Part shown: positions 11,193 through 64,000 of the stretch, one piece after another
How the letters are laid out: each line of letters starts with the position of its first letter
How positions within the stretch are numbered: position 1 is the stretch's first letter
Notes under the pieces: model-generated
The model's input: the letters and a program-made list of their open reading frames with translations, nothing else
Database searches by the model: none
Told to the model about the DNA's origin: nothing
Program-made: the position numbers and the translations under genes
Origin: Mesorhizobium sp. M1E.F.Ca.ET.045.02.1.1
GTDB lineage: Bacteria > Pseudomonadota > Alphaproteobacteria > Rhizobiales > Rhizobiaceae
Assembly: GCF_003952485.1 (NCBI RefSeq)
Contig: NZ_CP034447.1
Location: 868,001-932,000, forward strand
Length of the DNA stretch: 64,000 nucleotides
Direction of reading: 5' to 3'

Positions 11193-12545
11193 CTACGAAG
11201 TCGCCCCAGCGTCTTCCAACATCGCGAGGAATAACCGGTGTTTGTCAGGCACACCTTTGAGCACGCGCTCGCCCTGATCTGAGAAACGGAGGCCTGAGCC
11301 CGCTACCAAGTCCCTCACGGTCTGAGAGGTCAAAACCATTCCCCCCTCCGCTGAACTCATGATTCTTGCTCCCGTGTGGATAGCGAGGCCTGTTACGTTG
11401 GCCCCAACAATCGCACATTCCCCGACGTGGACACCCGCTCGAACGTCGATCTCAAGCTGCTTCACCGCGGCGGCAATGGTGAGGGCGCATCGTACCGCCC
11501 GCGCGGGTCCGTCGAACAGTGCCAAGAAGCCATCACCGGCAACCGTGAACTCCTCGCCGCGGTAGCGTGCGATTTCCTTGCGCACGATGTTGTAATAAGA
11601 GGTCAGCGTATTGCTCCATGACTGATCCCCGTCCCTCGCCAATTGGTCCGTCGATGACACGACGTCGAGGAACAGTATGGCGGCTAGTTTTCGGTCAGAC
11701 GCAACCTCCGGCGTCACACCGGTCAGAAACGACTGAATGTCAGCCAAAATCGTATCCATATCCTTGGCGACAAAGGTGTGTGTGTCCCCGGGATACTCCT
11801 TCATCTCTGCTTGAGGTATGCGCCGCGCCATGTCGCGCGCGGCTTCAACCGATGCAACCGGATCCTGAGTCCGGTTCATGACCAGCGTTGGGACTGAAAT
11901 CGTGGGAAGGATGTTCCGGATATCGATGTCCCGGTTCATCGCTTCGTAGGCTGCATGCGCGGACGGGCTTGCAGCGGCCCTCATATGACGAGCGAAGGCA
12001 TCGACCACCGTTTGATCGACAGTACGCCCGAGCCCGACTCCTGCTCCACGGATGTATTCGTCTGAGGGGCCGTTCTCGGCCATATCCTTGATAAGCTGAT
12101 CGTACGCCTCGGACGACATGCCCCATGGGTGATCATCCGAAGTACACCAACGAGCTTGCGTGCCCCAGACGATCAGCGATCTCACGCGGTCCGGGTTCAA
12201 GGCAGCGAACAAGCTCGTCATCGAGCCCCCCTCCGAAACACCGAAAAGGCTGGCGCGCTCCACCTTCTCCGCATCTATCACCGCCCGGATGTCGTCGGCC
12301 CGTTCCTCAAGTGTCGCCATTCGGATTGGGCGATCGGACAGCCCCGTTCCACGCTTGTCGAACTTGATGACCCGGCAGAACGCCCCAAGCTTCTCGAAAA
12401 ACAGAGCGCGAAGTGGCATCTCCCATTCCAGATCGAGGTGGGATGCCGTTCCCGGTGCCCAGACAAGGTCAACTGGACCACTGCCCCAGACCTGATATGC
12501 GATGGCCACGTCTCCACTTCGCGCGTACTTCGTTCGGGGTGTCAT
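11193..12545 (-). CDS. Alpha/beta-hydrolase-class III nucleotidyl cyclase fusion
   Basis: A 450-residue two-domain protein. Residues 1-270 are an alpha/beta hydrolase with nucleophile S104 (GVSEG), acid D228 and H256. Residues 285-445 are a class III cyclase domain with metal ligands D294 (FLDVVSST) and D338 (VAGDGF). The transition-state Asn is replaced by H390 in GLAIHTGARI, while R394 is kept. This His variant is common in hydrolase-linked cyclases, so activity is not excluded. The hydrolase part may be a sensor for a small ligand rather than an enzyme. The gene stands alone on the minus strand, with long non-coding DNA on both sides. Confidence 0.9.
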   Translation of the reverse strand: MTPRTKYARSGDVAIAYQVWGSGPVDLVWAPGTASHLDLEWEMPLRALFFEKLGAFCRVIKFDKRGTGLSDRPIRMATLEERADDIRAVIDAEKVERASLFGVSEGGSMTSLFAALNPDRVRSLIVWGTQARWCTSDDHPWGMSSEAYDQLIKDMAENGPSDEYIRGAGVGLGRTVDQTVVDAFARHMRAAASPSAHAAYEAMNRDIDIRNILPTISVPTLVMNRTQDPVASVEAARDMARRIPQAEMKEYPGDTHTFVAKDMDTILADIQSFLTGVTPEVASDRKLAAILFLDVVSSTDQLARDGDQSWSNTLTSYYNIVRKEIARYRGEEFTVAGDGFLALFDGPARAVRCALTIAAAVKQLEIDVRAGVHVGECAIVGANVTGLAIHTGARIMSSAEGGMVLTSQTVRDLVAGSGLRFSDQGERVLKGVPDKHRLFLAMLEDAGATS

Positions 12546-13191
12546 CTCTTTGCCTTTTCGTGGAAAGGGGACACTTACTCACGCTGAGTCGCGGCCCCGG
12601 CGATCTGCAAATGTTGGCCCGCTCCTTTCGTCTTCCGGAGTGCGTTCGACCTGCTGTAGTGTGGCATAAGTTACCTTAGGTTCCCACTACATCGGGGGTT
12701 TCCTCCAACGTAATCGATGGCAACGTCTGCTTTCAGGCGGTGTCAGAGCCTACTTAAATGGCCGACTTGCGGGCGCAAAGCGGTCGTTCAGTATCCGCAA
12801 TGCTCAAAGCGGCTTCGGTTAATTGCGCTCTTGCGTTGAGGGTCCCCGCTCCGCGTCGACCACGCTGCGTGGAGACAGGCAAATTGCAGTCCAGTGGTTA
12901 GACGATTAGAAATTAAACTTATCGGATTCGGCTCAAATCCACGGCAAACACCCCCGCTCTTCCATTCAGGGAACCGTCATTGGCGAATAGTGTTCGGGAA
13001 ACGAACCAATCCACAGAAATATTTTGTTGGTATTTTTGTGGTTCGAGCTGCCACGAGACGATAGTCAACTATCTGGAAACAAAACCAAATTTCCTGTACT
13101 TGGATTCCGCCTCTGGCACCATTCCTTTTTTGTCCAGCCCGGAAGCTCCGGTTCTAGGCAGTGCGAAAGGGAGTTGGCACGCAATCCGTGT
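12546..13191. other. 646-base gene-free region between two cyclase genes
   Basis: No gene is supported. The last third is AT-richer than the surroundings and contains the inverted repeats noted at 12992-13045. It serves as the upstream region of the hydrolase-cyclase gene and the downstream region of the DUF5939-type cyclase gene, both on the minus strand. Confidence 0.5.
13002..13045. repeat. Imperfect inverted repeat, possible hairpin
   Basis: The left arm CGAACC-aat-CCACAGAAATA and the right arm TATTTTTGTGGTTCG pair with a three-base bulge and one mismatch, around an 8-10 base loop. A further small repeat GTTCG-ggaaa-CGAAC overlaps at 12992-13006. It lies about 150 bases past the stop of the minus-strand cyclase gene. 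It might be a terminator or processing hairpin, but there is no clear T-run. Confidence 0.3.
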
Positions 13192-14637
13192 CTATCCCCG
13201 CATGATGCGATAGACAGTTGCATCACCCTCCACACCTCGAAGAGGCGCGTCAAAAGGCACGACACGAAGGCCGGCAAGCATTTCGCTAACCCCGGGCGCG
13301 GAATGGAGCGCCTCGGAAATGCAGACCTGTCCGGCTTCCGCCAAGGACTGCACGCGCGCGGCGACATTCACGGTCTGGCCGAAATAGTCGAGGTTGTCGT
13401 TGAGCGTCACGGCAATCGACGGTCCACAGTGGGCACCGATCTTCAGGATGATCCCCGGCCCGTCATGGTCGCCGTTGAAGCGATCGATTTCTTCAAAGAT
13501 GTGGAGTGCAGCCGAAATTGCATCCGACGGCTGCGAGAATGCAGCCATCACCGCATCCCCAATCGTCTTGACCACCGCTCCGGAATGTTGCTGAACCGCC
13601 GCGTTGACCAGAGCGAAATGCTCGCGGACCAACGCATAGGCGTTGAGGTCACCCAGGCGCTCATACATGGCGGTCGAACCCTTGAGGTCCGTGAACAGGA
13701 AGGTGATCTGCCGGATGCCGAGCCCCTCCTTCTCGTCGACACGTTCGGACCGGAAGAGCTGGCGGAAGGTTTGCCGCGCAAGCAGCGCTCCACCGGAAAC
13801 ATAAGGGTCGAAATCGAGCGCCGGCTTGGTAGTCAGCGCGACAAGTTCGGGCGGCCAGTTGATGGCAAGCAACGAACCTCGCACCGGCCCCCTATTCGTT
13901 ACCTCAATGACAATCGGACCAGGTGGCACGGCGGGCAACGCCGGCAAGAAGCGTTTGCCGTCATAATCAATCTTCAGAAGCGTCGGCGCCAATGCCGGAT
14001 CACCTGATATCGGCACAGCGAATGCGGCCTGCGTCTGCACGTTGACGCCCGCAAGGGCGCCCGGTCCGAGGTCGGCGCGGAGCGCTGTGGTGGTGCCGGG
14101 CGGCAGAAACGTCATGCCCCGAACGAAGCCGCGCAGAACGTCAAGAAAGCGAAGCCCTTGTCCCGGTAGCCGCCCGTCAGGTCCGAAGTGGAGCTTCCAG
14201 TGAAAATCCTCGACAGAGAGCGACTCGGGATCATGGTGCGGCAGGCGGCGCAACTTCGGCGATATCGAGAAGGTGACCTCGATGAAGTCGTCGAGGTCGG
14301 TGTCGCCCGATACGTCGCACAGGCCACAGACGTAGTGGGTCTTCAGCGTCCGCAGGGCGCCGAAACTATCGAGCACCATCCCGGACTGGGGACAGAGCAC
14401 ATCCCAACTCATGTCGAACAAGCCACAGCGGGCGGCATGAAGGAAGAGGTCGATTGCTTCAGGCTCGGCAATTGCGCGGTCGCGAGCAAAGGCCAGCGGA
14501 TTAACACGATAGAGCGAGTAGTCGTCGGCGCTCCTGATCAGCGTCTCGAATTTCGAGATGACGCGTGGACTCCAGGCTCGCGCCTGCTCCACCTTGGTCA
14601 TCTTGCTTTCGAGAAGACGATCGTTGACTACCGTCAC
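13192..14637 (-). CDS. DUF5939-type class III adenylate/guanylate cyclase (paralogue 1)
   Basis: A soluble 481-residue cyclase. The N-terminal ~300 residues correspond to the DUF5939-like region. The C-terminal cyclase domain is intact: metal ligands D317 (FLFTDLKGST) and D361 (KTIGDAVMA), transition-state N424 and R428 (GQTVNVAARV). It is paralogous to the plus-strand cyclase at 25.4 kb. The zinc-ribbon cysteines seen there are incomplete here: C82, C104 and C107 remain, while the fourth position is Ser (LCPQS). The longest frame starts with GTG at 14637. ATG 14601 is an equally reasonable start; neither has a strong ribosome-binding site. Confidence 0.92.
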   Translation of the reverse strand: MTVVNDRLLESKMTKVEQARAWSPRVISKFETLIRSADDYSLYRVNPLAFARDRAIAEPEAIDLFLHAARCGLFDMSWDVLCPQSGMVLDSFGALRTLKTHYVCGLCDVSGDTDLDDFIEVTFSISPKLRRLPHHDPESLSVEDFHWKLHFGPDGRLPGQGLRFLDVLRGFVRGMTFLPPGTTTALRADLGPGALAGVNVQTQAAFAVPISGDPALAPTLLKIDYDGKRFLPALPAVPPGPIVIEVTNRGPVRGSLLAINWPPELVALTTKPALDFDPYVSGGALLARQTFRQLFRSERVDEKEGLGIRQITFLFTDLKGSTAMYERLGDLNAYALVREHFALVNAAVQQHSGAVVKTIGDAVMAAFSQPSDAISAALHIFEEIDRFNGDHDGPGIILKIGAHCGPSIAVTLNDNLDYFGQTVNVAARVQSLAEAGQVCISEALHSAPGVSEMLAGLRVVPFDAPLRGVEGDATVYRIMRG

Positions 14638-15002: not shown

Positions 15003-17900
15003 GTGGCGCATAATCCCTTGGTTTCAATAGTGGTTCCTGCGCACAACGCCGAGGCAACGCTGGCGCGCGCACTCGATTGCCTCGTCGGTCAGGACACACC
15101 GGATTGGGAGGCGATCATCATCGACGATGCCTCCACGGACCGCACCCCCGCGATCATCGCGGGTTATGTGGAGCACGATCCCCGATTTCGCACGTTGAGC
15201 TCTTGCGCGTATAGCGCCGCCGGCGCGCGCAATAGCGGGATTTCGATGGCGCGCGGCCAATGGCTCATGTTTCTGGATGCGGACGATTGGGTGGATGCCA
15301 GCTTTCTTTCGAAAATGCTGGCCGCACTGAAAGCCGCTCCCGATGCGGTGGCCGCCTATTGCGGTTCTCGGCGCGTGATGCCCGACGGCGGACTCACCCC
15401 ATCGAGCATCGCAACGGAAGTTGCGATCCAGCCCTTCGAAACATTCGCCCGCCGGTGTGCCGTCCGCGCTCACGCGCTGCTGGTCGACCGGAAGACTATT
15501 GTCGAGTTGGGCGGTTTCGATGTGTCGCTGCGCACTTGCGAGGACTGGGATCTGTGGCAGCGCCTCGCACGTCTCGGCAAACGTTGGCTGATGGTCGACG
15601 AGCCGCTCGCTTTCCATCGGACCAACCCCAACGCACTCACCAGCAATTCGACGCAGATGCTGGCAGATGCGGAAATCGTGATCGCCCGCGGCTTTTCTCC
15701 TGATCCGAGGGTCAGGCACCCAGCATCGGCTCACGCCAATGGAGCGATCGACGCGAACGGCCGCACCGCTGCCGAAGCATTGGCGTGGTTCGCGCTGTGG
15801 AACGCCGCGTCGGATTGTGGCCGCGGATCGCGCTCGATCAACCCGCAGTTCCTGCGCGCACTCCCGGCAGGACGTAAATGGGTGCGTGAGATCGCCAAGG
15901 TGGTCTTAGATGGCCTTATGGTAGGAAGCCTTTCGGTGCCAGCGCAATTGGCTGCCAGGTGGGACAGGTTCGGCGGCGCCCTCACCGAATTGGTCATCGA
16001 ACTCGGCAAGGTCTGGGACGACCCCGCAGCGGGTCGCCGTGTCCAGTATCACCTTGAGCAAATGCTTCTTGACTTAGACGACCTTGCTGCGCCGCGCAGA
16101 TTGGCGCGGACGCTCGGAATTCGCGTCAAAGCTCGAAATCCGACCGCGATCGAATTGCCGGAAGGAATCGATCAAATTTATGCCTATCTGATGGTCGATG
16201 GCCGTATCGAGGCTCGCGTGCAGTTCGGCGCACTCGGGAAAGTGACAAGGCGCCATTGGATTGAATTGGCCTCACAGGGCGGCGGTGCCGACAAGTCAAA
16301 CATGTCTGCAGCCGAGGCATCGTTGTCCATGGCTGGACACCGGTCTGATCCAGACAGCCACTTCGGCAAACTCGCGCTATTGGCCGCGGAAGCGCAGGGG
16401 CTGGTTCGGTCGAGCGCCGAACCTGCGGAGCCACTTGCAGCACCGCGCCGTAAACACGCCGCGGATGACCACGATAATGATCGCACGTCGTTCTGGAATC
16501 GCCATTTCGCGACCGAGGACCCCTGGAACTACGGTTCGCCCTATGAGCAGGAAAAATATGAGCGCCAGCTCGAGATTCTGCCTGCCGGTCCCATCGGACG
16601 GGCGCTTGAGCTGGCCTGCGCGGAGGGCCACTTCACGCGGCAACTGGCGCCGCGAGTAGGCCATTTGACCGCAACTGACATCTCCAACGTAGCCGTCGAG
16701 CGGGCGCGCGCGCGATGCAGCGATCAGCCGAATGTCGAGTTCGGCGTACTGGATTTCTCCGCGGACACGCTTCCGCGTGAGATGGATCTGATCGTCTGTT
16801 CGGAAGTGCTCTACTACCTGGATGATCTCGCCGAGTTGCGCCGCGTCGCCAGAAAACTTGTTGAGCCGTTGGCGCCTGGCGGCAGTCTCATCAGCGCACA
16901 CGCATTCGTGCTCCGAGACAATGTTGAAAGGACGGGCTTCGACTGGAACACATTCGGCGCACAAGCGATCTCGGAAACGCTGGCAGCGACCGAAGGCCTT
17001 GTCCTCGAGCAATCGATCCAGACCGAGCTCTATCGCATAGACCGCTTCCGCCGCCTGTCGCCAGACGACGTGGCGACGGAACCGATGATTGATCACGTGC
17101 CAATCCGTGCGCCCATCGGTATCGGGGTCGCGCGAAATATCGTCTGGGGCGGAGCACGGGCCTTGCGCCGCGACGTCGCGCGTACCGAACGGCGGCAGCG
17201 TATCCCTGTCCTCATGTATCACGGCGTCGCCGATGATGGTCCGGCAGCGCTCGCCCGTTTTCGGCTCACGCCCGCGGCATTCGCCAGCCAGATGGCATGG
17301 CTGCGCGCCAATGGCTTTCACGCGATCATGTCCGAGCAGCTGGAATGGTCCATCGCCAACCGTCAACCCTTCGCTGGCCGCCCGGTGCTGATCACCTTCG
17401 ACGACGGCTTCCAGAATTTTGCCGACCACGCCTGGCCGATCTTGCGCGCCAACGACCTGACTGCGGAAGTGTTCCTGGTGACGGACTTGGTGGGTGAAAC
17501 TGCACGATGGGACGCCGGCAGCGGTCCGCCGACGCAGCTTATGGACGCCGGGACGGTGCGACGCCTAGCGGGCGAAGGTGCGTTCTTCGGAAGCCATCTG
17601 GCGACGCATCGCGCAATCGATGGTCTGTCGAGCGCCGACCTGGCCGCCGAGCTCTTGCGCTCTCGCATGTTCATCGAACGGTGGACCGGTCGGCCAATCG
17701 CGTCGTTCGCGGCGCCCTTCTCTGTCACCGACCGACGGCTTGGACGGCTGGCCAGGGAGTGCGGTTATCGGATCGGCTTCGGCGGCAGACACGGGCCGGC
17801 GGACCTCGAGTCCGATCCCATCGACCTTCCGCGCATCGAAATTCGCGGGGATCGCTCGCTCGACGAATTTGTTGTCCGTCTCGAGGCCGTGCTCGAATGA
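15003..17900 (+). CDS. Trifunctional glycosyltransferase 2 / SAM methyltransferase / polysaccharide deacetylase
   Basis: A 965-residue protein with three catalytic modules in order. Residues 1-230 are a GT2 glycosyltransferase with nucleotide-binding DDAS at 41-44, DxD in LDADDW and a TCEDWDLWQRL block. Residues 496-700 are a class I SAM methyltransferase of NodS type, opening SFWNRHFATEDPWNYG and with LELACAEGHF at about 535. Residues 733-965 are a NodB-like polysaccharide deacetylase (VLMYHGV, LITFDDGF, metal His pair in SHLATH). The module set matches NodC/NodS/NodB of Nod-factor synthesis, so an N-acetylhexosamine-containing glycan is a reasonable substrate. The same fusion is known in other proteobacteria. 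The GTG start at 15003 is weakly supported. Confidence 0.9.
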   Translation: MAHNPLVSIVVPAHNAEATLARALDCLVGQDTPDWEAIIIDDASTDRTPAIIAGYVEHDPRFRTLSSCAYSAAGARNSGISMARGQWLMFLDADDWVDASFLSKMLAALKAAPDAVAAYCGSRRVMPDGGLTPSSIATEVAIQPFETFARRCAVRAHALLVDRKTIVELGGFDVSLRTCEDWDLWQRLARLGKRWLMVDEPLAFHRTNPNALTSNSTQMLADAEIVIARGFSPDPRVRHPASAHANGAIDANGRTAAEALAWFALWNAASDCGRGSRSINPQFLRALPAGRKWVREIAKVVLDGLMVGSLSVPAQLAARWDRFGGALTELVIELGKVWDDPAAGRRVQYHLEQMLLDLDDLAAPRRLARTLGIRVKARNPTAIELPEGIDQIYAYLMVDGRIEARVQFGALGKVTRRHWIELASQGGGADKSNMSAAEASLSMAGHRSDPDSHFGKLALLAAEAQGLVRSSAEPAEPLAAPRRKHAADDHDNDRTSFWNRHFATEDPWNYGSPYEQEKYERQLEILPAGPIGRALELACAEGHFTRQLAPRVGHLTATDISNVAVERARARCSDQPNVEFGVLDFSADTLPREMDLIVCSEVLYYLDDLAELRRVARKLVEPLAPGGSLISAHAFVLRDNVERTGFDWNTFGAQAISETLAATEGLVLEQSIQTELYRIDRFRRLSPDDVATEPMIDHVPIRAPIGIGVARNIVWGGARALRRDVARTERRQRIPVLMYHGVADDGPAALARFRLTPAAFASQMAWLRANGFHAIMSEQLEWSIANRQPFAGRPVLITFDDGFQNFADHAWPILRANDLTAEVFLVTDLVGETARWDAGSGPPTQLMDAGTVRRLAGEGAFFGSHLATHRAIDGLSSADLAAELLRSRMFIERWTGRPIASFAAPFSVTDRRLGRLARECGYRIGFGGRHGPADLESDPIDLPRIEIRGDRSLDEFVVRLEAVLE

Positions 17901-18085
17901 GCGGTGAACTTTTCAGTCGGGTGCGTGCTGCCACGAGTGCGCGGGCATCGCCAGACCGTACATTCTGGCTCACCGAGGCCTTGGTTCCGCTTTTTGTTCA
18001 GCGTCCTGCCCGTCACCTCGTTTGCAAGCCTATTGGGCGACTTGCGACACGGCCGACATCAGCTCCTGCGGGTTCGGCGCCGTAA
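17897..18085 (+). pseudogene. Possible truncated gene start coupled to the trifunctional gene
   Basis: An ATG overlaps the trifunctional stop codon as ATGA, the layout of a translationally coupled next gene. It opens MSGELFSRVRAATSARASP and continues with FWLTEALVPLFVQRPA, which reads like protein for about 40 codons. It then runs into the antisense of the redoxin gene and stops at 62 codons. My reading is the 5' end of a lost downstream gene, cut at a junction near 18,020. I do not recognise the family. Confidence 0.25.
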
Positions 18086-18716
18086 ACATGTATCGCCCAC
18101 CCTCTGGAACCTCCGTGAAGCTCCAGCGGACCACCCCCTGCCGGTCGAGTAGGAACTGACCGATCAGTTGTCCGTGTCCGGTTGCCATCATCTGCTCGTC
18201 GGCTTCCGTCAGTTCGTAATGGTCCTTCTTGTCGAGGAATTCGCTGGCCGCAAAAGGATCCATTGGACCGGGCAACTCGCCTGGTAAGTCGACCCGCATA
18301 TCCTTTGCCGCTGCCATCGAGACCTTGTACGGCCAGTTCGTCTCGTCTTCGGTGAATTCGAGATTGGGCAGTCCAAAAGCACGATGTGAAGCGCGTTCAG
18401 GGTCGGAGGCCGCAAGCAGATTCGGCATCGGGTGGTAGCGGAAATAGAGACGCGCCCGCTCGATCGGCGTGTTGACCACCGTCAGGCTCCCCACGCCCTT
18501 TTCGCGCAGCTCCGGATCAAGTCGCGCCTGGGCAGCGATATGGCGCCGGCAAAACGCACAATGCAGACCTCGAAACAGGCCGACCAGCACCGGTCTTTGT
18601 CCGCGAAAGTCGTCAAGCGCGATCTTGCCTTCCTGGGTAATGGCGTCGAGCACTACGTTAGGCGCACGGTCGCCCGGTTGAAGCGGTATCAAGTCACTAT
18701 GCACCGACATTTCCAA
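18030..18716 (-). CDS. Peroxiredoxin-like (AhpC/TSA, redoxin-domain) protein
   Basis: A 228-residue thioredoxin-fold protein. The N-terminal half is redoxin-like (LQPGDRAPNVVLDAI, then PVLVGLFRGLHCAFCRRH), with a CxxC pair where peroxiredoxins carry the peroxidatic Cys. The C-terminal 80 residues form a family-specific extension. No signal peptide, so probably cytosolic. It starts 12 bases after the stop of the large cyclase/AAA gene on the same strand and is probably co-transcribed with it, which may link the signalling protein to redox state. Convergent with the trifunctional gene. Confidence 0.8.
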   Translation of the reverse strand: MEMSVHSDLIPLQPGDRAPNVVLDAITQEGKIALDDFRGQRPVLVGLFRGLHCAFCRRHIAAQARLDPELREKGVGSLTVVNTPIERARLYFRYHPMPNLLAASDPERASHRAFGLPNLEFTEDETNWPYKVSMAAAKDMRVDLPGELPGPMDPFAASEFLDKKDHYELTEADEQMMATGHGQLIGQFLLDRQGVVRWSFTEVPEGGRYMFTAPNPQELMSAVSQVAQ

Positions 18717-18728
18717 CCTCCCGCCCGG

Positions 18729-21700
18729 CTAGTCGAGAAAAGGCAGCACCACAAGCGCTTCCGGGTCGAGCCCGTGCTGGGCGCATATGCCCTGCGCCAG
18801 GGAAAAGTAGCGTTCGGCCTCGGCCAGATTGTCGAGGTCGAGATTAAGCGTTGCGAGACCATCATAGCACGGAAACAGCAGTTGGGGTTCGCCCGTTTCG
18901 CGGGCTACGTCCAGTGCTTCTTGGAACAAGCCAACCGCCAGTTCCGGATGGCCGCTGCACTGGTGGATCTGCCCGAGCACGATCAACGGCACCGGCAGGT
19001 GCTCGCGCTGGTCGAGCGCCCGGTCGATCTCGATGGCCTTCTCGGCAGCAGGCACGCCCTCCGTTGGACAGCGATCGGTGAAAGTACAACAAGCGACCGC
19101 CAGATTGGCGAGGAGGCGCGCCTGGAACCCCAGATCACCAACACGACGCGCCACTTCAAGACCGCGCCGACAGACCTCTATCGCCTGTGCAGGATTGATG
19201 GTCGTGTAAAGCACGCCGAGATTGGTGTAGCCGCGGCAGGCTGCGCCCAGTAGACCGGCGGCTTCGGCCAATTCAATGCTTCGCTCAACCTGACGCACCG
19301 CTTCAAGGTTTCGCCCAAGGCGAGCCAGCGCAACAGCCTTGGTGTTGAGCGCCTCGGCGGTCACAAGAGTGGCTTCACGCCCTACCTCGGAGACATGCTC
19401 CGTTGTCAGAGTGCGTACGCTATCCAGCGCCGCGTCTGCCAATGTCGCCGCAAGAGCGTGATCTCCGCTTCGGAACGCGTGTCGGCCACGTTCTTGCCAG
19501 AGATGCGCCTGCTCGATCGGCGCATCCGCTCCATCGAGGAGCGCTGCGGCCTCAGCATAGCGGGATTCTGCCTTGTCCCGCTTGCCGATATCCCAGAGCA
19601 GCCGACCGATCTTGCGCAAAACTCGCGCCGAGGCGACACGATCGGCTGACTCGCGGTACGCCTGCAACACCGTCTCGTAGTGATGGTGCGCGATCTCGCG
19701 GCGGCCTGCCGGGCCGCTCAAATCGGCAATGCGCTCTGCAATTGCCAGTTTGAGCGGCGTTTGCCCGGTCGCGTCCAACGCAGTCAGTGCTCGCTCGTAG
19801 AAACGAAGGGCGTCGTCATTGGCGTATATCATGCGAGCGCGATCGCCCGCCTCCTGCAGGTAGTGCGCGCCCTTCTCCCGCTCGGTGCTCTGTGCGAAAT
19901 GATGACCGAGCACGGTCAAATCCTCGAGCCGTTCCGGCTTGTCGCCGCACAGTTGCTCCAAGGCAGCACCGACCCGCCCGTGAATGTCGGTCCGGCGTTG
20001 CAGGAGCAGATTCTGGTAGATCACGTCCTGCAGCAATGTTTGCGTAAAGCGGTAGCTTTGCGACGAGACCGAACCTGATCCGGCAACCTCCTCGATGATT
20101 TCCGCATCGCAAAGCAATTCGCAGCCGGCTTCCAGGCGGCCGGGGTCGGCCGTCACGGCTTTCAGAAGGGTCGCGTCGAAGCGCGGGCCGATCACCGCGG
20201 CCTCCTGGGCCAACCGGCGGACCTCTTGGGGCAGCCGGTCGACCCGGGCAAGAAGCATTGCCTGAATAGTGGCGGGAATGCCGGTTGCAACTTCGCCTGT
20301 CACAGTCCGCCATCGCTGGCCCTCGCGTATCAGCACACCGCGATCGATAAGGCCGCGAACGGTCTCCTCTACAAAAAGGGGATTGCCGCCTGCGCGCTCG
20401 AGGATCTGGTCGAGAAGCCCTCCTGCGGACTTTACCCAGCTCTCGCCGAAAAGCGCCGCCAGCAGTCTGCGTCCGTCGTCACTGTTGAGCGGCGAAAGCC
20501 TGAGCGCTGTGTGACTGACCCGACTTGAGTCGAGCTGGTCGTTGTCCGGCGCCGGACGATGGGTGACCAGTAACATCAACCGCGTGCGTTCCAACCTGTC
20601 CATCACGAAACGCAGTGCCTCGAGCGACACAGCGTCGGCCCAGTGCAGGTCTTCGACGACAATCAACAGCGGCGACAACGCAAGCCGCCGTTCGACGATT
20701 GTACGGACTGCGTAGAGAATTTGTCGCCGCAGTTGCTCGGGCTCGACATGCTGCAAGGTGGCATCGGGGTCGCCAAGGCCGAGCACATGGTAGAGCAAAG
20801 GCATCAGCCGCCTCGCCTCCTCGCCCTGCAGGCCGAGCTCGGCAAGCAAGCCTGCGAGCTTCCCCCGCATTTCGTCCCCATTGTCGTTTTGCATCATCCC
20901 CGCAGCGCTGCGCACCACCGCGCCCAAGGCGCCAAATGATTGTTCGCCCAGCGGTGAGCACGTGGCCTGCCGCACCGCGACGTTGCGAAAACGATCCTCG
21001 TCGCCGACGCGGGCGACGAACTCCTTCACCAGTCGCGATTTCCCGATACCGGCTTCTCCGACGAGGCGGACAAGTTGGGCCGCGCCGCCGCACGCCTGGT
21101 CAAGGCACGCCAGCATTCTATTGAGCTCCGCACCACGACCTATTATCGGCGCGCTAAGGCCGAGCGCCTCGAGCCCGCGCGCGGCACGCGGCGCCGCCAG
21201 CGGTGCATCCAGTCGATGGACGAGCACACTGCCGGCCTTGCCGCGAAGCATGACATCCCCCAGCGACTCGTAAGAGAAGGCATGCCGGGTCAGCCTGTGA
21301 GTGAGTTCGCCTACCAGCACCTCACCCGGTGCGGCCAGCGATTGCAGGCGTTGCGCCGTATTCACTGTGTCGCCGGTCACCGAATAGGATTTGGCGGTGC
21401 CGATGCCCAATCCGCCAGTGACGACCGGACCGGTGTTTATGCCTATGTGGAGTAACAGTGGCGAGCCGGAGCTGGGGGCCCTTTCGCCGAGCCGCGCCGT
21501 CCGGGCCATCATGTCGAGCGCGGCGCGAAGCGCACGTTCCGGATCGTCCTCATGCGCGACCGGAGCACCGAACAAAGCGAGCAGTGCATCGCCGATGAAT
21601 TTGTCGACGAAACCCCCAAAGTTTCGCACGGCTGCCGTCAATTCCTTGAACAGTTCGTTCTGCAGTGCCTGCATCACTTCGGGGTCGAGCTGCTCGCTGA

Positions 21701-22025
21701 GTGTCGTGAAGCCGCAAAGATCGGCGAACAGGACCGTTACGGTCCGGCGATCGGCGTCTGAGGCGGGATGGCGCCCATCGCCTTCGATGTTCGCAAGCAG
21801 CGACGGAGTTCGCGAAGGCGGCACAACGGTCCGGCTTGGTGCCGAAGCAGGCCTTTCGACGGCTTTCGCGGGCGCACCGACGCTTGTCCCGCATTTCGGA
21901 CAGAACTCGAAATCAGGTGCGCAGAGATAGCCGCAATTGGCGCATGGCACGGGCTGGCGCCTTCCGCACTTCGGACAGAAAGCGAAACCGCCCTCAACCT
22001 CGAAACCGCAGCCCGAGCAGTCCAT
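18729..22025 (-). CDS. Zinc-ribbon / class III cyclase / AAA ATPase / TPR signalling protein
   Basis: A 1,098-residue multidomain protein. Two zinc ribbons come first (C3/C6/C17/C20 and C28/C31/C42/C45). A class III cyclase follows at about residues 92-275 with D102, D146, N222 and R226 all present. Next is a STAND/AAA-type ATPase with Walker A GEAGIGKS at 323-330 and Walker B LLIVVEDLHW. A C-terminal region of about 400 residues is rich in TPR-like helices. This is the adenylate cyclase/ATPase architecture common in rhizobia, where the ATPase-TPR part is thought to sense and gate the cyclase. The ligand is unknown. The redoxin gene follows 12 bases downstream. Confidence 0.93.
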   Translation of the reverse strand: MDCSGCGFEVEGGFAFCPKCGRRQPVPCANCGYLCAPDFEFCPKCGTSVGAPAKAVERPASAPSRTVVPPSRTPSLLANIEGDGRHPASDADRRTVTVLFADLCGFTTLSEQLDPEVMQALQNELFKELTAAVRNFGGFVDKFIGDALLALFGAPVAHEDDPERALRAALDMMARTARLGERAPSSGSPLLLHIGINTGPVVTGGLGIGTAKSYSVTGDTVNTAQRLQSLAAPGEVLVGELTHRLTRHAFSYESLGDVMLRGKAGSVLVHRLDAPLAAPRAARGLEALGLSAPIIGRGAELNRMLACLDQACGGAAQLVRLVGEAGIGKSRLVKEFVARVGDEDRFRNVAVRQATCSPLGEQSFGALGAVVRSAAGMMQNDNGDEMRGKLAGLLAELGLQGEEARRLMPLLYHVLGLGDPDATLQHVEPEQLRRQILYAVRTIVERRLALSPLLIVVEDLHWADAVSLEALRFVMDRLERTRLMLLVTHRPAPDNDQLDSSRVSHTALRLSPLNSDDGRRLLAALFGESWVKSAGGLLDQILERAGGNPLFVEETVRGLIDRGVLIREGQRWRTVTGEVATGIPATIQAMLLARVDRLPQEVRRLAQEAAVIGPRFDATLLKAVTADPGRLEAGCELLCDAEIIEEVAGSGSVSSQSYRFTQTLLQDVIYQNLLLQRRTDIHGRVGAALEQLCGDKPERLEDLTVLGHHFAQSTEREKGAHYLQEAGDRARMIYANDDALRFYERALTALDATGQTPLKLAIAERIADLSGPAGRREIAHHHYETVLQAYRESADRVASARVLRKIGRLLWDIGKRDKAESRYAEAAALLDGADAPIEQAHLWQERGRHAFRSGDHALAATLADAALDSVRTLTTEHVSEVGREATLVTAEALNTKAVALARLGRNLEAVRQVERSIELAEAAGLLGAACRGYTNLGVLYTTINPAQAIEVCRRGLEVARRVGDLGFQARLLANLAVACCTFTDRCPTEGVPAAEKAIEIDRALDQREHLPVPLIVLGQIHQCSGHPELAVGLFQEALDVARETGEPQLLFPCYDGLATLNLDLDNLAEAERYFSLAQGICAQHGLDPEALVVLPFLD

Positions 22026-22150
22026 CGAACAGACCTCGCTAGGGGCCGTGACGGCGTAATCCCGCTACGCACCTCACGGCCGGGTATTCACACAAGGATG
22101 AACCTATAGCCGTCGACCAGCAAGCGGCAGCGCAAATGGGCATCGAGCGA

Positions 22151-23563
22151 TCAGCGTGGGTCCGGTGGCAGAACGCTGCCGATTGCGGGCGGGCTCGCCC
22201 GGCCGATCTTGCGCCATCGGGAGTCTTCGCGGACCAGGTTCAGGTCGTCGGTCGTCTCGGCAAGTGTCCGCAAACGATATTGCCGGAGCAGTTCCGGGAA
22301 GAGCGCCCCTTCCGGCAGGCCGGCAAGCTGCTCGCGGACCGAGATCCTTTCATCGATGACCCGCATGCCCCAGGCATTTTCGCGAACCTGCAGCTCCGCA
22401 GCCAGATCGCGCTCTTCCGGCGCGTTTTCGTCCAGCGCAGCCAGCAGGATCGAGTGGAAAAGCGCTACGTAGCCAATCTGTCTCAGGCCACCCACAACCC
22501 GCACGCGTGGCAATATGGCAAGGACGAGGAACATCAGGAACAAGTTCGGCAGCAGCACGCCGTCCAGCAGCGCCTGCCTGAGATGCGGCCGCTCGAACGG
22601 GATGGAAAGACCATGTGGCCTGTCAGGCTCGATCAGCTGCCCGTCCTCGAGGACGAGCTTGCGCACGCGTTCCTCGCGGATGCCCCAGAAATAGTCCGTG
22701 GCATTGGGCAGGAATCTGCCAAATGGGCCCGATGCGGCCTCTTGCAAGGCACGTTCGAGACGCAGGCGCCTTGCGGGCTCAATGAGCAGCCTGGAAAGAA
22801 GGCTGCCGTCATATTCCAGATGCCGCGCCATGGCAGCCGCGGCGAGCCGATCATCGATGAAAACCGGCAGGGCCATGCCGGAACGATCCCAATCGGCGAC
22901 CAGATCCTCATTGAGGGCTGTCAGCGCATCGGCGGCGGTTCCAAACACCTTGTCCTGGCTGGCAAGCAGTGTGCCAAGCCAGCGGCTGGCATCCTTTTCA
23001 TCGCCCACAGCTTCGAGCGCGCGCTTGTTGAGGGAGACAGGACCGGCCACGCAGGCGCTTTTGCGGCACAGTTTGTGGCGTCCCATGCCAAACAGGTTGA
23101 CCTTGTCGTCGCCGATATCGAGCCATCCTGGCCCCTCCCGGCCGATTGTCTCCATGGTCATCGTCGTTCCCATGAAGTTGACGAAGGCCGACAGCCCGTT
23201 TTCGACCGCGCCGAGCCAGGCAAGCAGGAGGGCATCGAAGGTGATCCGGTCCATCAGAAGCAGGCAGTGCAGGCCGGACTGAATCACCGGTCTCTGCTCG
23301 AACTCTTCGAGGGCCTTGCCGATCTCCGCAGGCTGCATAATCACGCCGAGGCGCTGACGCAGGACGTCTCGCAGGATCGAGCGGGCAGCGATTGCCGGGC
23401 CCGATGCAGGCCTTGCCACCGGCCGCCACAGATGGCGGGCGTAATCGGAAACCGGTGCATTCCAGTTCTGCTCGATGTCGCGCGCGACTTCCGGGCAGAG
23501 CAGCGACAGCACGGCCAGAATTTCCATCGGAGGCGTAGGGGTTGGGTCAACTACGGCGGTCAT
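22151..23563 (-). CDS. Hypothetical protein of unknown family, 470 residues
   Basis: I do not recognise this protein. The minus-strand frame is favoured over a similarly long plus-strand frame because its composition is protein-like and it contains a coherent hydrophobic stretch (LPNLFLMFLVLAILPRV, about residues 345-361), while the opposite frame is rich in Gln, His and Arg. Other distinctive segments are SGLHCLLLMDRITFDALLLA and FVNFMGTTMTMETIG. There is no signal peptide. It lies 125 bases upstream of the cyclase/AAA gene on the same strand and may share its transcript. An enzyme with a membrane-associated helix is possible, but no catalytic motif is evident. Confidence 0.65.
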   Translation of the reverse strand: MTAVVDPTPTPPMEILAVLSLLCPEVARDIEQNWNAPVSDYARHLWRPVARPASGPAIAARSILRDVLRQRLGVIMQPAEIGKALEEFEQRPVIQSGLHCLLLMDRITFDALLLAWLGAVENGLSAFVNFMGTTMTMETIGREGPGWLDIGDDKVNLFGMGRHKLCRKSACVAGPVSLNKRALEAVGDEKDASRWLGTLLASQDKVFGTAADALTALNEDLVADWDRSGMALPVFIDDRLAAAAMARHLEYDGSLLSRLLIEPARRLRLERALQEAASGPFGRFLPNATDYFWGIREERVRKLVLEDGQLIEPDRPHGLSIPFERPHLRQALLDGVLLPNLFLMFLVLAILPRVRVVGGLRQIGYVALFHSILLAALDENAPEERDLAAELQVRENAWGMRVIDERISVREQLAGLPEGALFPELLRQYRLRTLAETTDDLNLVREDSRWRKIGRASPPAIGSVLPPDPR

Positions 23564-23759
23564 TGGTCCCGTCTAGCGGCTTGCGGTGCAAACGCCAACG
23601 GGGACCAGACTTCCTGAAGCGCTTGGCCCACGCAACTCGATCAAATGGTGTGAGACGAAATTGACCGTATCCTACGGAGTCCTCCATCAGCAATCACCTG
23701 TTCGCCGACTCGGCACGAATTGTCAGATTGGCTGAACAGCCAAGGCCAAACAGCGGATC

Positions 23760-24284: not shown

Positions 24285-24358
24285 GGCGTTCCCGGCGAAG
24301 GCAATCGGCCCGGCACGATGCACCGGACGTCACCCGAAAATCCAGTCGTCTCCGTAAT

Positions 24359-26801: not shown

Positions 26802-26816
26802 AGACTTCTCGCCCTT

Positions 26817-29689: not shown

Positions 29690-29691
29690 GC

Positions 29692-45074: not shown

Positions 45075-45094
45075 AGGCTCCGCCGTCTGCTTGA

Positions 45095-47511: not shown

Positions 47512-47512
47512 C

Positions 47513-52313: not shown

Positions 52314-52514
52314 GACTTCTGCACCGGTTGCTGTGCTGCGTGTCCTTCCTGCATGGTCCCGCCCCGGGAGGTAGGTTTCGAGCCTCAAGGCTAGGCTGCA
52401 TTGTTCCCGGCGAATGTGCAATCACCAACCTTACCGCCCCAACGGAGTAGCGCAGTCCCAGCGCTGACGATTTTCCGCAGCCAGGAAGAACCGAGTAAAC
52501 ACTGGGGCTACGAA

Positions 52515-61777: not shown

Positions 61778-63265
61778 TCAGGCACGACTTCTAGCGCGCT
61801 CGGCCGTGTCGTCCGTCTCCACATCAGCTCCGTTCGAGATCAATGCTCTCATCATATCGGCGCGGCTGTCGATTGCGGTGTCGATATCGGTGGCCAGCTT
61901 GTGGTTCTTGTCCAGCATACGCTGCATGGCTGAATCAGGAATAGCGATCACCTCGCTAGCTTCGTCCGCCACGAGGCTCACCGGGCTTGGTGTCCCGCGA
62001 AAAATCTGGCGGATGGCAAACATCTGCCCGGGCGACAGCCGATCAACGACGCGGGGGCCGCTGGGGGTATCGATCGCAGTCGAGAGGCTGCCGCTAAGCA
62101 GAATGTAGAAAGCGGTGGCGGGCGCGCCGTGTGCGAGCAATAGTTCACCAGGCGCGTAGCGTTCGATCCGCGACGCTTCGGCAAGCTCCTCGATACCGGT
62201 CACCGGGCCGCGCAGTGCACCGCTGTTGACGATCAACCGAACTCGCTCCTCGGCCGTCACTCCCCAGTCGAGCGCACCGCCAATCACTTCGACGACCTTG
62301 CCGTCCCCGGTCCGCATGAGGGAGATGCCGTGTCGCGGCAGAACGTGCCAGATGCGGTCGAGAAGCGTGTTGCATGCACGGCCTATCTTGCCCGGCTCGT
62401 CCACCAACACACCCACTGCATAGCGAATACCGCCGGCAGTCCATTCCGCGACCTGGCAGCTGGCGCTGTCGGGACCGATGCTCTCTGGAATGCTTCGCGC
62501 GGCCTCGGTCAAGGCAGCGATAACCTGGTCCGGAGGATAGGCCGAAGGAACGACGATCGACGTGCCTGCCCCGAACGGTTGCCCATTTCGCACGATCCGC
62601 AAGGTGTCCCCTGCAATCTTCGAACTCGGCACGGCGATCCGCTCCCCGCCAGCTTCCAGAGTCACGGCACGCCAGTCGACCTGAACGACCTTGGCGTAGC
62701 CCTGGTCGAGACGCAGCCAGTCGCCGATGGCGAAATGTCGGCCGGAGAGCACGATGAGGCCATTGGCGAGACCGCCGATCACGCTTTGTAGCGCCAGCCC
62801 GAGGACGACCGATCCGACGCCGAGCGCGCCGAACAGCGTCGTAAGCTTGATATCCCACACCGTGGAGATGATGAAGGCGCCGCCCACGATGACGATGAAG
62901 ACTGCGCCGAGCTCGTGGAAAAGCCTGGGCGCCTGAGCCCGTCCATCGACCGCACGTCTCGCCGCCAGGAGAACGGTCTGCCCGATCAGCAGGACCGCAT
63001 AGAGCACGAGTATGCCGACAATGGTATCGATGACCTTGAAGGCTACGCCGTCGGAAGGGAGCGACGAGAGCTTATGGATCAAGACCCATAAGGCGACAGC
63101 AGGCAGAACGGCATTCTGGATCACCTTCAGCGGGCGGGTGGTTTCGGAGCCCTCCATGCGCCGGGTGACCTCGGAAAGGACAAGGGTGACGAGAGGATAG
63201 CCGAGGACGACAACGGCCGCCCACGCGAGAAAGCTGGACCACGGGATGTTTGTCATGACAATCAC
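61778..63265 (-). CDS. MscS-family channel with C-terminal cyclic-nucleotide-binding-like domain
   Basis: About 495 residues. Four membrane helices lead to an MscS core (TLFGALGVGSVVLGLALQSV, IGGLANGLIVLSGRHFAIGD). The C-terminal 130 residues are a cNMP-binding-like fold (YAPGELLLAHGAPATAFYILLSG). Its phosphate cassette reads FAIRQIFRGTPSPVSLV and lacks the canonical Gly-Glu and Arg, so cNMP binding is doubtful or altered. Such cyclic-nucleotide-gated MscS-like channels (bCNG) are a known class. The start is GTG 63265 or ATG 63256. The gene follows the HAMP-cyclase-like gene within 2 bases, indicating an operon. Confidence 0.88.
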   Translation of the reverse strand: MIVMTNIPWSSFLAWAAVVVLGYPLVTLVLSEVTRRMEGSETTRPLKVIQNAVLPAVALWVLIHKLSSLPSDGVAFKVIDTIVGILVLYAVLLIGQTVLLAARRAVDGRAQAPRLFHELGAVFIVIVGGAFIISTVWDIKLTTLFGALGVGSVVLGLALQSVIGGLANGLIVLSGRHFAIGDWLRLDQGYAKVVQVDWRAVTLEAGGERIAVPSSKIAGDTLRIVRNGQPFGAGTSIVVPSAYPPDQVIAALTEAARSIPESIGPDSASCQVAEWTAGGIRYAVGVLVDEPGKIGRACNTLLDRIWHVLPRHGISLMRTGDGKVVEVIGGALDWGVTAEERVRLIVNSGALRGPVTGIEELAEASRIERYAPGELLLAHGAPATAFYILLSGSLSTAIDTPSGPRVVDRLSPGQMFAIRQIFRGTPSPVSLVADEASEVIAIPDSAMQRMLDKNHKLATDIDTAIDSRADMMRALISNGADVETDDTAERARSRA

Positions 63266-63266
63266 A

Positions 63267-64000
63267 TCATGCAGCCGCGGTGACAGACGACGCCGCAGCG
63301 ATGGGGCCTTGCCACGTATCCACGGCCTCGGCCTGGTTGATCGGGATGGATGGCTTCTTCACGAAGCCATCCGCATCCGGCAGTTGCTCCAGGACCGGCT
63401 TCGTGATGCGCACGGAATTGGCATCGGCGTCGAAGACGATGCGGCGTGCCGTGAGCACCGTCAGGCCCCACATGCTATAGACCGTGCGTTGCTGGCCGAC
63501 GAGGCCGACTTCCACGTCGCCGAGCGCGACCGCGGCCTTGACCGTGAGCGGTATGCTCCAGTTACGGCTGTGGCGCTCCGCTATCTCGGCCACCGCCGCG
63601 ATGAAGGAAAGGATTCGCCGCGCACCATCCAGCCGAGGCGTCGAGAGTCCGCAGGCGGCAATATACGTTTCGCCGAACGAATGGGTTTTCTCCACGCCGG
63701 CGTCCAACGCCGCCTCATCTATGTCGCTGATCAGTTCGTTGACAGCCTTCAACGTGTCCTGTGTCGCGTCGGTAACAAGCACGTTGATACCGTCGATATC
63801 GATCACCGTGACCGCGACGTTCTTGACGACCTCGGCCACCGATTCCTCGCCCATTTTGATCCGCTCGGCGACGATTTCGGGAAAGACGTTGCGCAAGAGC
63901 GCTTCATACTCGCCGGTCTTCTGGGCGATCTTGTCGCTGCGTGTGGCAATCTCGTCGGCCATGGTATTGAACGCGCGACTGAGTTCGCTGAATTCGTCGC
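63267..64000 (-). CDS. HAMP-linked degenerate class III cyclase, partial
   Basis: The 5' end lies beyond the right edge. The visible N-terminal part reads DEFSELSRAFNTMADEI, the end of a HAMP linker, so a membrane sensor probably precedes. The cyclase-like domain has its first Asp (VIDIDGI), but the second metal position is Glu (SFGETYIA) and the transition-state Asn position is Leu (YSMWGLTVLTARRI). It is therefore probably inactive or of altered activity. It is directly upstream of the cNMP-domain MscS channel on the same strand. The ATG at 63,962 is internal to the HAMP helix. Confidence 0.82.
   Translation of the reverse strand, partial: DEFSELSRAFNTMADEIATRSDKIAQKTGEYEALLRNVFPEIVAERIKMGEESVAEVVKNVAVTVIDIDGINVLVTDATQDTLKAVNELISDIDEAALDAGVEKTHSFGETYIAACGLSTPRLDGARRILSFIAAVAEIAERHSRNWSIPLTVKAAVALGDVEVGLVGQQRTVYSMWGLTVLTARRIVFDADANSVRITKPVLEQLPDADGFVKKPSIPINQAEAVDTWQGPIAAASSVTAAA

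What the first reader, a model, noticed from the sequence alone, without database searches (positions are those of the whole stretch)
11193..64000. Dense cluster of class III cyclase domains with different sensors, plus cNMP-binding proteins
Within about 53 kb I count seven genes with recognisable class III cyclase domains (11.2, 13.2, 18.7, 25.4, 33.6, 50.1 and 63.3 kb) and an eighth, DUF3095, with a cyclase-like metal site. Input modules differ: alpha/beta hydrolase, zinc ribbon (two paralogues), zinc ribbons plus AAA-TPR, an unassigned region, CHASE2 and HAMP. Two proteins carry cNMP-binding folds, one intact and one degenerate. Rhizobia are known for many cyclases, but this local density interleaved with envelope genes suggests a signalling neighbourhood. 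The co-location is visible; joint function is inference.
Basis: partly seen in the sequence, partly recalled or inferred. Interest (0 to 1): 0.75.

Follow-up and report, generated by a model that had tools for sequence, protein, structure and literature searches.

The report
Mobile cyclase-rich island in Mesorhizobium
A stretch of this soil bacterium's chromosome really is crowded with enzymes of the kind that make cyclic-nucleotide messengers, and the crowd sits on and around a mobile block of about 31 kb of sugar-building, export and messenger-sensing genes that many related bacteria carry and others lack.

Summary
All seven class III cyclase domains score above the Pfam cut-off. They are 7 of the genome's 20, in 52 kb; 20,000 random placements never put more than 5 that close. 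They are not a tandem expansion: only cyc2 and cyc4 are sisters. DUF3095 is a remote class III cyclase homologue by profile comparison.

The cluster has layers. An older core (cyc5, DUF3095, a peptide-type ABC importer, glycosyltransferases, an MsbA-like exporter, a stand-alone cNMP-binding protein) recurs on Sinorhizobium and Rhizobium plasmids. Mesorhizobium added cyc3 and cyc4, giving a ~31-kb block with changing flanks. Cyc1, cyc2, cyc6 and cyc7 are accessory. Of 119 genus genomes, 76 with DUF3095 have 6 to 25+ cyclases and 43 without have 0 to 4; in a 28-genome sample the latter are polyphyletic. Part of that gap is the block's own cyclases.

So a mobile cyclic-nucleotide island is supported. 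Joint function of all seven is not: four are strain-level neighbours, and cyc7 is degenerate and frame-broken in this assembly. Messenger identity, exporter control and cargo are inference. Cyc5 has an invariant Ser/Ser base-recognition pair, neither the adenylyl nor the guanylyl type.

The parts
18030..48727 (.). Conserved Mesorhizobium block (redoxin ... gt28b), about 31 kb
   Evidence: Pairwise blastn coverage 0.88-1.00 among 9 loci; gt28b-side 10-kb flank 0.00-0.02 for all pairs except window-G002 and G002-G003
15003..17900 (+). 965-aa GT2 + NodS-like methyltransferase + polysaccharide deacetylase protein, beside (once inside) the block in 8 of 10 relatives
   Evidence: Pfam
18729..22025 (-). 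cyc3: double zinc ribbon + class III cyclase + AAA_16 + TPR; residues D,K,D,S,N,R
   Evidence: type found in 14 of 15 loci
25386..26801 (+). cyc4: DUF5939 + class III cyclase; residues D,K,D,D,N,R
   Evidence: 15 of 15 loci
27513..33488 (-). Opp/Gsi-like peptide-type ABC importer: two permeases, binding protein, fused ATPase (best NCBIfam names below their cut-offs)
   Evidence: kept beside cyc5 in 15 of 20 more divergent loci
33633..35057 (-). cyc5: unassigned N-terminus + class III cyclase; residues D,S,D,S,N,R conserved in 89-90 of 90 sequences
   Evidence: 15 of 15 loci
35239..36681 (-). UDP-glucose/GDP-mannose dehydrogenase family
36689..37867 (-). DUF3095, remote class III cyclase homologue (residues 42-127), Asp47 and Asp90 invariant
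37943..39804 (+). Glycosyltransferase (GT4 type) and the next gene (258 aa; no Pfam hit at 0.001 here; its WSM1497 counterpart is annotated polysaccharide deacetylase family)
39856..40710 (-). MBL-fold hydrolase, RNase Z-like; sub-cut-off similarity to a cyclic-nucleotide-degrading phosphodiesterase model
   Evidence: 41.4 bits against a cut-off of 400
40786..41256 (-). Stand-alone cNMP-binding protein with intact cassette GEIAIL...RTATV
41427..44141 (-). MsbA-like ABC exporter (904 aa); ATPase part appears interrupted by a long insertion
   Evidence: present in the same 13 of 28 genomes as DUF3095
44142..48727 (.). SAM methyltransferase-like gene (no Pfam hit here; so annotated in WSM1497) and three glycosyltransferases (two with a GT28 C-terminal domain, one GT4 type)
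11193..12545 (-). cyc1: alpha/beta hydrolase + class III cyclase (LipJ-like); accessory; residues D,T,D,N,H,R
13192..14637 (-). cyc2: DUF5939 + class III cyclase; accessory; residues D,K,D,D,N,R
49041..52421 (.). FecR-domain protein (+) beside cyc6, a CHASE2 + class III cyclase (-); accessory; cyc6 residues D,K,D,S,N,R
61778..63265 (-). MscS-type channel with C-terminal cNMP-binding domain (cassette Glu read as Gln)
   Evidence: 1 of 61 genus genomes
63267..63998 (-). cyc7: degenerate class III cyclase domain; the gene continues past the window and its frame breaks there

Best explanation
The window carries a mobile genomic island for cyclic-nucleotide signalling at the cell envelope. SHOWN by sequence comparison: a ~31-kb block with cyc3, cyc4, cyc5, a cyclase-like DUF3095 protein, a stand-alone cNMP-binding protein, an MBL hydrolase, an MsbA-like exporter, a peptide-type importer and sugar-building genes is kept together, is present or absent together for the marker genes tested, has changing surroundings, sits on a plasmid in at least one Mesorhizobium (its core on plasmids in Rhizobium and Sinorhizobium), and repeatedly has further unrelated cyclase genes beside it. 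INFERRED: the cyclases with their different sensors feed one nucleotide signal; the stand-alone cNMP-binding protein is its receptor and acts on the neighbouring exporter, which secretes a glycoconjugate made by the glycosyltransferases, deacetylase and methyltransferase; the MBL hydrolase may end the signal; the importer brings in an external, perhaps host, peptide cue. Cyc1, cyc2, cyc6 and cyc7 are later, strain-level arrivals that may plug into the same pool.
For: 7 of 20 genome cyclases in 52 kb against a chance maximum of 5 in 20,000 placements. Block coverage 0.88-1.00 in 9 loci with near-zero similarity beyond the gt28b edge for all but two pairs. DUF3095, exporter and the close cNMP-binding protein are present in the same 13 of 28 genomes and not found in the other 15. 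Block-lacking genomes polyphyletic, 8 changes on an rpoB tree of 30 genomes. 11 conflicts between block tree and rpoB tree at support 0.95 or more on both sides. Core on S. meliloti 1021 pSymB 822.6-845.0 kb and on R. leguminosarum pR132502; whole block plus more cyclases on pWSM1497. 13 cyclase types on or beside the block in 15 loci; 13 non-core cyclases within 30 kb in 6 near-complete genomes against 0.85 expected. Intact receptor cassette in 84 of 84 sequences at 50% identity or more.
Against: No experiment links any gene here to a nucleotide or to export. The cNMP-binding protein could act elsewhere. Cyc5's base-recognition pair is Ser/Ser, so its product is unknown; for DUF3095 no transition-state Asn/Arg could be aligned. 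In the Rhizobium and Sinorhizobium stretches read, the core has only one cyclase, so high density is not needed for core function, and the MBL gene is missing from the R. leguminosarum stretch. The contrast in cyclase number is small between close relatives: G109 has 6 (3 of them recognised at the block) against 2 in its well-supported sister G064; G044 has 2 outside the block against 0 in G021 and G053. G109 also lacks cyc3 at the block.
Confidence: 0.5

Rival explanations
1. Hotspot crowding: the island edge is simply a permissive landing site, and cyclases, which are many in these genomes, accumulate there without working together.
For: Cyc1, cyc2, cyc6 and cyc7 are accessory and of different architectures; in the cyclase tree only cyc2 groups with a core member. 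This strain's right flank is shared with one of 8 relatives compared and its left flank only in part (0.00-0.46). Cyc7 is frame-broken.
Against: Uniform chance is excluded, and unrelated cyclase types recur beside the block. The core with cyc5 is kept across genera. I did not count other gene families at the edges, so a general insertion hotspot is not excluded.
Confidence: 0.3
2. A polysaccharide/envelope island in which cyclases are mere passengers: the functional unit is glycan synthesis and export, and cNMP binding plays no role.
For: Many core genes are glycosyltransferases and transporters; in the S. meliloti stretch the core has a single cyclase.
Against: Cyc5 stays beside DUF3095 in 16 of 20 more divergent loci, and with the importer in 15 of them; the receptor cassette is invariant in 84 of 84 and the catalytic positions of cyc5 in 89-90 of 90.
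Confidence: 0.15
3. An anti-phage Pycsar-type system built from class III cyclases and cNMP-binding effectors.
For: PADLOC PycC profiles hit six of the seven cyclases (not the cyc7 fragment; best 2.2e-28 for cyc6), and the cNMP-binding protein matches the nucleotide-binding part of PycTIR.
Against: The effector match covers only the nucleotide-binding part; no TIR domain was reported in the Pfam scans of 48 window ORFs. PycC profiles score best on an ordinary CHASE2 cyclase.
Confidence: 0.03

Closest known systems
S. meliloti cAMP system: CHASE2 cyclases CyaD1/CyaD2/CyaK with Clr (PMC13001267, PMC10127613)
   Same: Rhizobial genome with many class III cyclases (28 in S. meliloti according to these papers), some of them CHASE2-type as cyc6
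   Different: There the receptor is a Crp-like transcription factor; here the linked receptor is a stand-alone binding domain beside an exporter, and the cyclases are clustered on and around a mobile block
S. meliloti 1021 pSymB region 822.6-845.0 kb (not described in the papers I saw)
   Same: Same core genes: DUF3095, cyc5, importer, glycosyltransferases, MBL, exporter, cNMP-binding protein
   Different: One cyclase only; cyc3, cyc4 and the accessory cyclases not found in the 37 kb fetched
MsbA2 export operon of S. meliloti (SMb21191)
   Same: MsbA-type exporter with glycosyltransferases, proposed to secrete an unknown polysaccharide (passages of PMC3687685, PMC12239276)
   Different: A different locus: its operon's ChvI-bound fragment is at 938 kb on pSymB, the homologue of this exporter at 842-844 kb
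Cya2 guanylyl cyclase of Synechocystis (PDB 2w01)
   Same: Best-scoring solved structure to the cyc5 catalytic domain
   Different: Cya2 has a Glu/Gly base-recognition pair (passages of PMC4215837, PMC5995499); cyc5 has Ser/Ser
Rv1900c/LipJ lipase-cyclase
   Same: cyc1 has the same two-domain order and matches NF058673 over nearly its full length
   Different: 330 bits against the LipJ equivalog cut-off of 800: similar architecture, not the equivalog
Bacterial cyclic nucleotide-gated MscS-type channels (bCNG; recalled)
   Same: The 61.8-kb channel has an MscS domain plus a C-terminal cNMP-binding domain
   Different: Cassette Glu appears lost here and the adjacent cyclase is degenerate and frame-broken

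Membership tests
Class III nucleotidyl cyclase (cyc1-cyc6) | PF00211 domain above curated cut-off | tested here: met
   28.8 to 93.0 bits against 21.9
Class III nucleotidyl cyclase (cyc2-cyc6) | Two metal-binding Asp, transition-state Asn and Arg | tested here: met
   All four present in cyc2-cyc6
Class III nucleotidyl cyclase (cyc1) | Two metal-binding Asp, transition-state Asn and Arg | tested here: inconclusive
   Both Asp and Arg present, His in place of Asn
Class III nucleotidyl cyclase (cyc7) | Two metal-binding Asp, transition-state Asn and Arg, intact frame | tested here: not met
   Second Asp is Glu, Asn is Leu, frame breaks, although PF00211 scores 69.5 bits
Class III nucleotidyl cyclase (DUF3095) | Homology to the catalytic domain | tested here: met
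   hhalign score 46.6, P 4e-6; controls at most 26.2. No PF00211 match among the families listed for 104 members, so remote only
Class III nucleotidyl cyclase (DUF3095) | Transition-state Asn/Arg and cyclase activity | tested here: inconclusive
Adenylyl or guanylyl cyclase (cyc5) | Lys (ATP) or Glu (GTP) at the first base-recognition position | tested here: not met
   Ser in 90 of 90 sequences; rule from passages of PMC4215837
cNMP-binding domain (40786-41256) | Phosphate-binding cassette with Glu and Arg | tested here: met
   PF00027 79.1 bits; Glu and Arg in 84 of 84
LipJ equivalog (cyc1) | Score over NF058673 cut-off | tested here: not met
   330.2 bits against 800
Pycsar | PycC cyclase plus dedicated toxic effector beside it | tested here: not met
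   PycC-like hits but no TIR domain among 48 scanned ORFs
Mobile genomic island | Unit kept intact while flanks differ, patchy distribution, phylogenetic conflict | tested here: met
Mobile genomic island | Integrase, attachment site or tRNA at the ends | tested here: inconclusive
   No tRNA in the window; no integrase in the Pfam scans; one Mutator-family transposase at 1760-2956; attachment sites not searched

The most novel reading that the evidence does not exclude
The core is a self-contained, horizontally moving messenger module that uses a non-standard nucleotide: cyc5 (invariant Ser/Ser pocket) and possibly DUF3095 (a divergent, uncharacterised cyclase-like family) make a cyclic nucleotide other than cAMP, read directly by the stand-alone binding protein to switch an MsbA-like glycan exporter, without a transcription factor. 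Strains that acquire it then collect further cyclases.
Probability: 0.12. Interest if true: 0.85.

Novelty: new variant of a known kind. Interest (0 to 1): 0.52.

Why it matters
Some rhizobia have long been noted for many class III cyclases (PMC554113, PMC13001267), and partners are known for few of them (my reading of the field). This locus gives a genetic unit that ties one cyclase, a cyclase-like family of unknown function and one receptor to defined transport genes, and natural with/without strains in which to test it. If DUF3095 proves catalytic, a large unknown protein family gains a function.

Tried and rejected
Reading cyc5 as a guanylyl cyclase: my first residue table took the wrong position (three residues before the transition-state Asn) for the second base-recognition residue and suggested that adenine specificity was lost. 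After reading passages of PMC4215837 I moved it to seven residues before, a position I recalled and checked against the Glu/Gly pair given there for Cya2 and the alignment (result); the pair is Ser/Ser, which fits neither rule. The Thr beside the cassette Arg in the cNMP-binding protein (84 of 84) resembles cGMP-kinase cassettes but is, as I recall, also found in cAMP-preferring channels, so I do not use it to name the ligand.

Identifying the exporter as MsbA2: recalled, tested and rejected; msbA2 is SMb21191 with its operon's ChvI-bound fragment at 938 kb, while the homologue here is at 842-844 kb.

Tandem duplication as origin of the cluster: rejected. In a tree of the genome's cyclase domains only cyc2 and cyc4 of the seven are sisters, and cyc5's sister is at 2.32 Mb (many deeper forks of that tree are unresolved and cyc7, cyc1 and cyc5 have long branches).

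A Pycsar defence reading: rejected. An apparent in-frame TAG in other cNMP-binding proteins: not seen within the tblastn alignments of the two such loci checked, so dropped. Two first rpoB trees were wrong because loci were read on the wrong strand or in the wrong frame and were replaced. The cyclase-number contrast was first read as a total separation; part of it is the block's own cyclases.

Left unused or unanswered: structure prediction; a count of other gene families at the block edges; relatives of the MscS-cNMP channel outside Mesorhizobium beyond plasmids (no plasmid match at 1e-40); the third protein search and the last genome search.
Full report
Check of the observation. The window is 868,001-932,000 of a single 7.35-Mb contig; its close relatives in named records are Mesorhizobium. 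A PF00211 search of that genome gives 20 cyclase domains, all over the cut-off, 7 of them in the window. The seven span 52.1 kb; 20,000 uniform random placements of 20 genes never reached more than 5 in such a span, and the densest such span outside the window holds 3. Pfam, NCBIfam and PADLOC scans confirm the different partner modules. The two 'zinc ribbon' paralogues carry DUF5939. I label the genes cyc1 (11193-12545), cyc2 (13192-14637), cyc3 (18729-22025), cyc4 (25386-26801), cyc5 (33633-35057), cyc6 (50109-52421) and cyc7 (from 63267 past the window end).

Catalytic residues. In the order metal Asp, first base-recognition residue, metal Asp, second base-recognition residue, transition-state Asn, transition-state Arg: cyc1 D,T,D,N,H,R; cyc2 D,K,D,D,N,R; cyc3 D,K,D,S,N,R; cyc4 D,K,D,D,N,R; cyc5 D,S,D,S,N,R; cyc6 D,K,D,S,N,R; cyc7 D,H,E,S,L,R (one search's column for the second base-recognition residue is superseded; the positions themselves are recalled rules checked against Cya2). 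Cyc2 and cyc4 look like plain adenylyl cyclases. Cyc5's pattern is invariant in 89 or 90 of 90 sequences, which were picked at 50% identity or more. According to passages of PMC4215837, ATP-specific enzymes have Lys and GTP-specific ones Glu at the first position; cyc5 has Ser. The best-scoring solved structure to its catalytic domain is 2w01, which passages of PMC5995499 identify as Cya2, a guanylate cyclase. I make no claim about its product. Cyc7 continues beyond the window; the sensor part and the catalytic part lie in different frames, with the break at about window 64.15-64.2 kb. Whether that is real or an assembly error cannot be told here.

DUF3095. It is annotated as unknown function by Pfam; some database entries call it adenylate cyclase. 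Among the 17 Pfam families listed for 104 members at E up to 10, PF00211 is absent (HMMER's filters drop most matches above about 0.1). A profile of the 104 against a profile of 6 window cyclases plus 25 diverse neighbours gives probability 87%, P 4e-6, score 46.6 over residues 42-127, aligning Asp47 and Asp90 with the two metal-binding Asp; the N-half alone gives 91% and P 9e-7. With end-to-end alignment forced, the probability falls to 41%. Controls: 60 column shuffles at most 22.5, 60 shuffles in 12-column pieces at most 25.9, reversed profile 18.8, 22 unrelated profiles at most 26.2. Asp47 and Asp90 are invariant. The C-terminal half does not match, and a sequence search of solved structures finds nothing significant. 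So it is a remote homologue; activity is untested. A full-text search of the held open-access library found no paper with 'DUF3095' and none with 'DUF5939'.

The conserved block. Comparing window proteins with neighbourhoods of 10 other Mesorhizobium genomes shows the genes from redoxin and cyc3 to gt28b in the same order in all 10, apart from small gaps (one small membrane-protein gene is missing in 2) and one gene moved inward in G002. In the 9 loci compared pairwise, including the window, the block is covered 0.88-1.00, while the 10 kb beyond gt28b is covered 0.00-0.02 in all pairs except window-G002 (0.59-0.60) and G002-G003 (0.24). The other side is variable, 0.00 to 0.93, so that edge is not sharp. 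In the first 60 (L053-L112), cyc5, exporter, cNMP-binding protein and MBL gene accompany DUF3095 in 60 of 60; in the other 20 (L113-L132, mostly other genera or divergent strains) cyc5 does so in 16, cyc5 with the importer in 15, and exporter plus cNMP-binding protein within 10 kb in 9. In three genomes of other families, one (G030) keeps MBL, cNMP-binding protein and exporter near DUF3095, and two (G028, G037) do not. On S. meliloti 1021 pSymB, 822.6-845.0 kb, and on R. leguminosarum pR132502 the core is present with one cyclase, the cyc5 homologue; the R. leguminosarum stretch lacks the MBL gene. On pWSM1497 the whole block sits on a 532-kb plasmid with eight cyclase-annotated genes in the 49 kb fetched.

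Distribution. Of 119 genus genomes examined (95% or more complete, drawn evenly from a larger group), 76 have DUF3095 and 43 do not. In a chosen sample of 28 of these genomes the exporter is found in 13 and the close cNMP-binding protein in the same 13, which are the DUF3095 carriers. On an rpoB tree of those 28 plus 2 outside genomes the lacking genomes are not one clade; parsimony needs 8 changes, with both outside genomes scored as DUF3095 carriers. Fourteen block genes of 13 genomes give a tree with 11 conflicts with rpoB at support 0.95 or more on both sides, which fits horizontal transfer, though rpoB recombination could contribute. Against an over-reading: carriers own at least the block's own cyclases. 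Counting only those outside the block region, six carriers with assemblies of one or two contigs have 13, 10, 5, 10, 9 and 2, and six such non-carriers 2, 1, 1, 0, 1 and 0 (Mann-Whitney P 0.006; counts taken by me, one of G003's being below the cut-off). Close relatives differ less: G109 has 6, 3 of them recognised at the block, against 2 in its sister G064; G065 has 6 against 1 in G099, though that grouping has almost no support.

Accretion of cyclases. In 15 loci I find 13 cyclase types at 65% identity: cyc5 and cyc4 in 15, cyc3 in 14 (absent from G109), a ~593-aa type in 7, a 357-aa type in 7, the cyc2 type in 3, and seven types seen once, among them cyc1, cyc6 and cyc7. The stretches differ in length, so low counts are lower bounds. 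In six genomes of one or two contigs 13 non-core cyclases lie within 30 kb of the block where 0.85 are expected (P 9e-12; three of the six are not significant alone). This test assumes independence between genomes, which shared ancestry violates; the near-block counts were taken by me, and for two genomes I estimated the size of the second contig. A tree of this genome's cyclase domains makes only cyc2 and cyc4 sisters among the seven, so the cluster looks assembled rather than duplicated in place.

How it most likely works. The block combines makers (cyclases), a reader (the 156-aa protein with an intact cassette, 84 of 84), a possible eraser (an MBL protein with weak similarity to a cyclic-nucleotide-degrading phosphodiesterase model, 41 bits against a cut-off of 400, and more to RNase Z), an exporter of MsbA type, a peptide-type importer and glycan-building enzymes. 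The simplest mechanism is that the signal made by the cyclases is read by the small protein, which controls the exporter beside it. Each link in that sentence beyond gene content and linkage is inference.

Known relatives. S. meliloti uses CHASE2 cyclases with the Crp-like regulator Clr, which responds to cAMP and cGMP (abstract, introduction and one passage of PMC13001267; passages of PMC10127613). Cyc6 is a CHASE2 cyclase, but it is accessory here. The eight other full-text queries listed no paper that by title or abstract start describes this cluster; of the listed papers I saw sections or passages of PMC13001267, PMC10127613, PMC3687685, PMC12239276, PMC5539429, PMC5596199, PMC4653623, PMC554113, PMC4215837 and PMC5995499 only. 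Passages of PMC554113 and PMC4653623 report enrichment of the cyclase domain in plant-associated or nodule bacteria; the passages do not mention a cluster.

Verdict. The density is real and not chance. It is best read as a mobile island with a conserved cyclic-nucleotide and envelope core, plus strain-level extra cyclases. The parts are of known kinds; the assembly, the Ser/Ser cyclase and the cyclase-like DUF3095 are the unusual features.

Noticed in passing
window 15003-17900: One 965-aa protein joins a GT2 glycosyltransferase, a NodS-like methyltransferase and a polysaccharide deacetylase, kinds of activity like those of NodC, NodS and NodB in Nod factor synthesis (comparison recalled); found beside or in the block in 8 of 10 relatives fetched.
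   Followed up: partly
window 61778-63998: MscS-type channel with a C-terminal cNMP-binding domain directly downstream of cyc7; channel cassette and cyclase both look degenerate and the cyclase frame is broken; channel in 1 of 61 genus genomes, no plasmid match at 1e-40.
   Followed up: partly
window 52515-56305: A sulfatase beside a sulfatase-modifying-factor (FGE) type protein and a DUF900 hydrolase; within the stretches fetched the trio is shared with one of 10 relatives, G002.
   Followed up: no
G000 contig 5.92-5.95 Mb (L011, L012): A second group of three cyclases; its 357-aa length class lies next to the block in seven other loci, so the two clusters may once have been one region.
   Followed up: partly
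L165 43325-46896 (pWSM1497): Beside the 357-aa cyclase: a gene annotated Rab family GTPase and a large OmpA-family protein.
   Followed up: no
L164, record about 828457-829812 (S. meliloti 1021 pSymB): The cyc5 homologue matches in two overlapping reading frames in the 1021 record, while strain RCAM1750 shows a single annotated gene.
   Followed up: no
window 1760-2956: Mutator-family (IS256-like) transposase outside the block, the only transposase in the window's Pfam scans.
   Followed up: no
window 22151-23563 and 24359-25276: Two block genes with no Pfam family (470 aa and 305 aa), found in 10 and 8 of 10 other Mesorhizobium blocks fetched.
   Followed up: no
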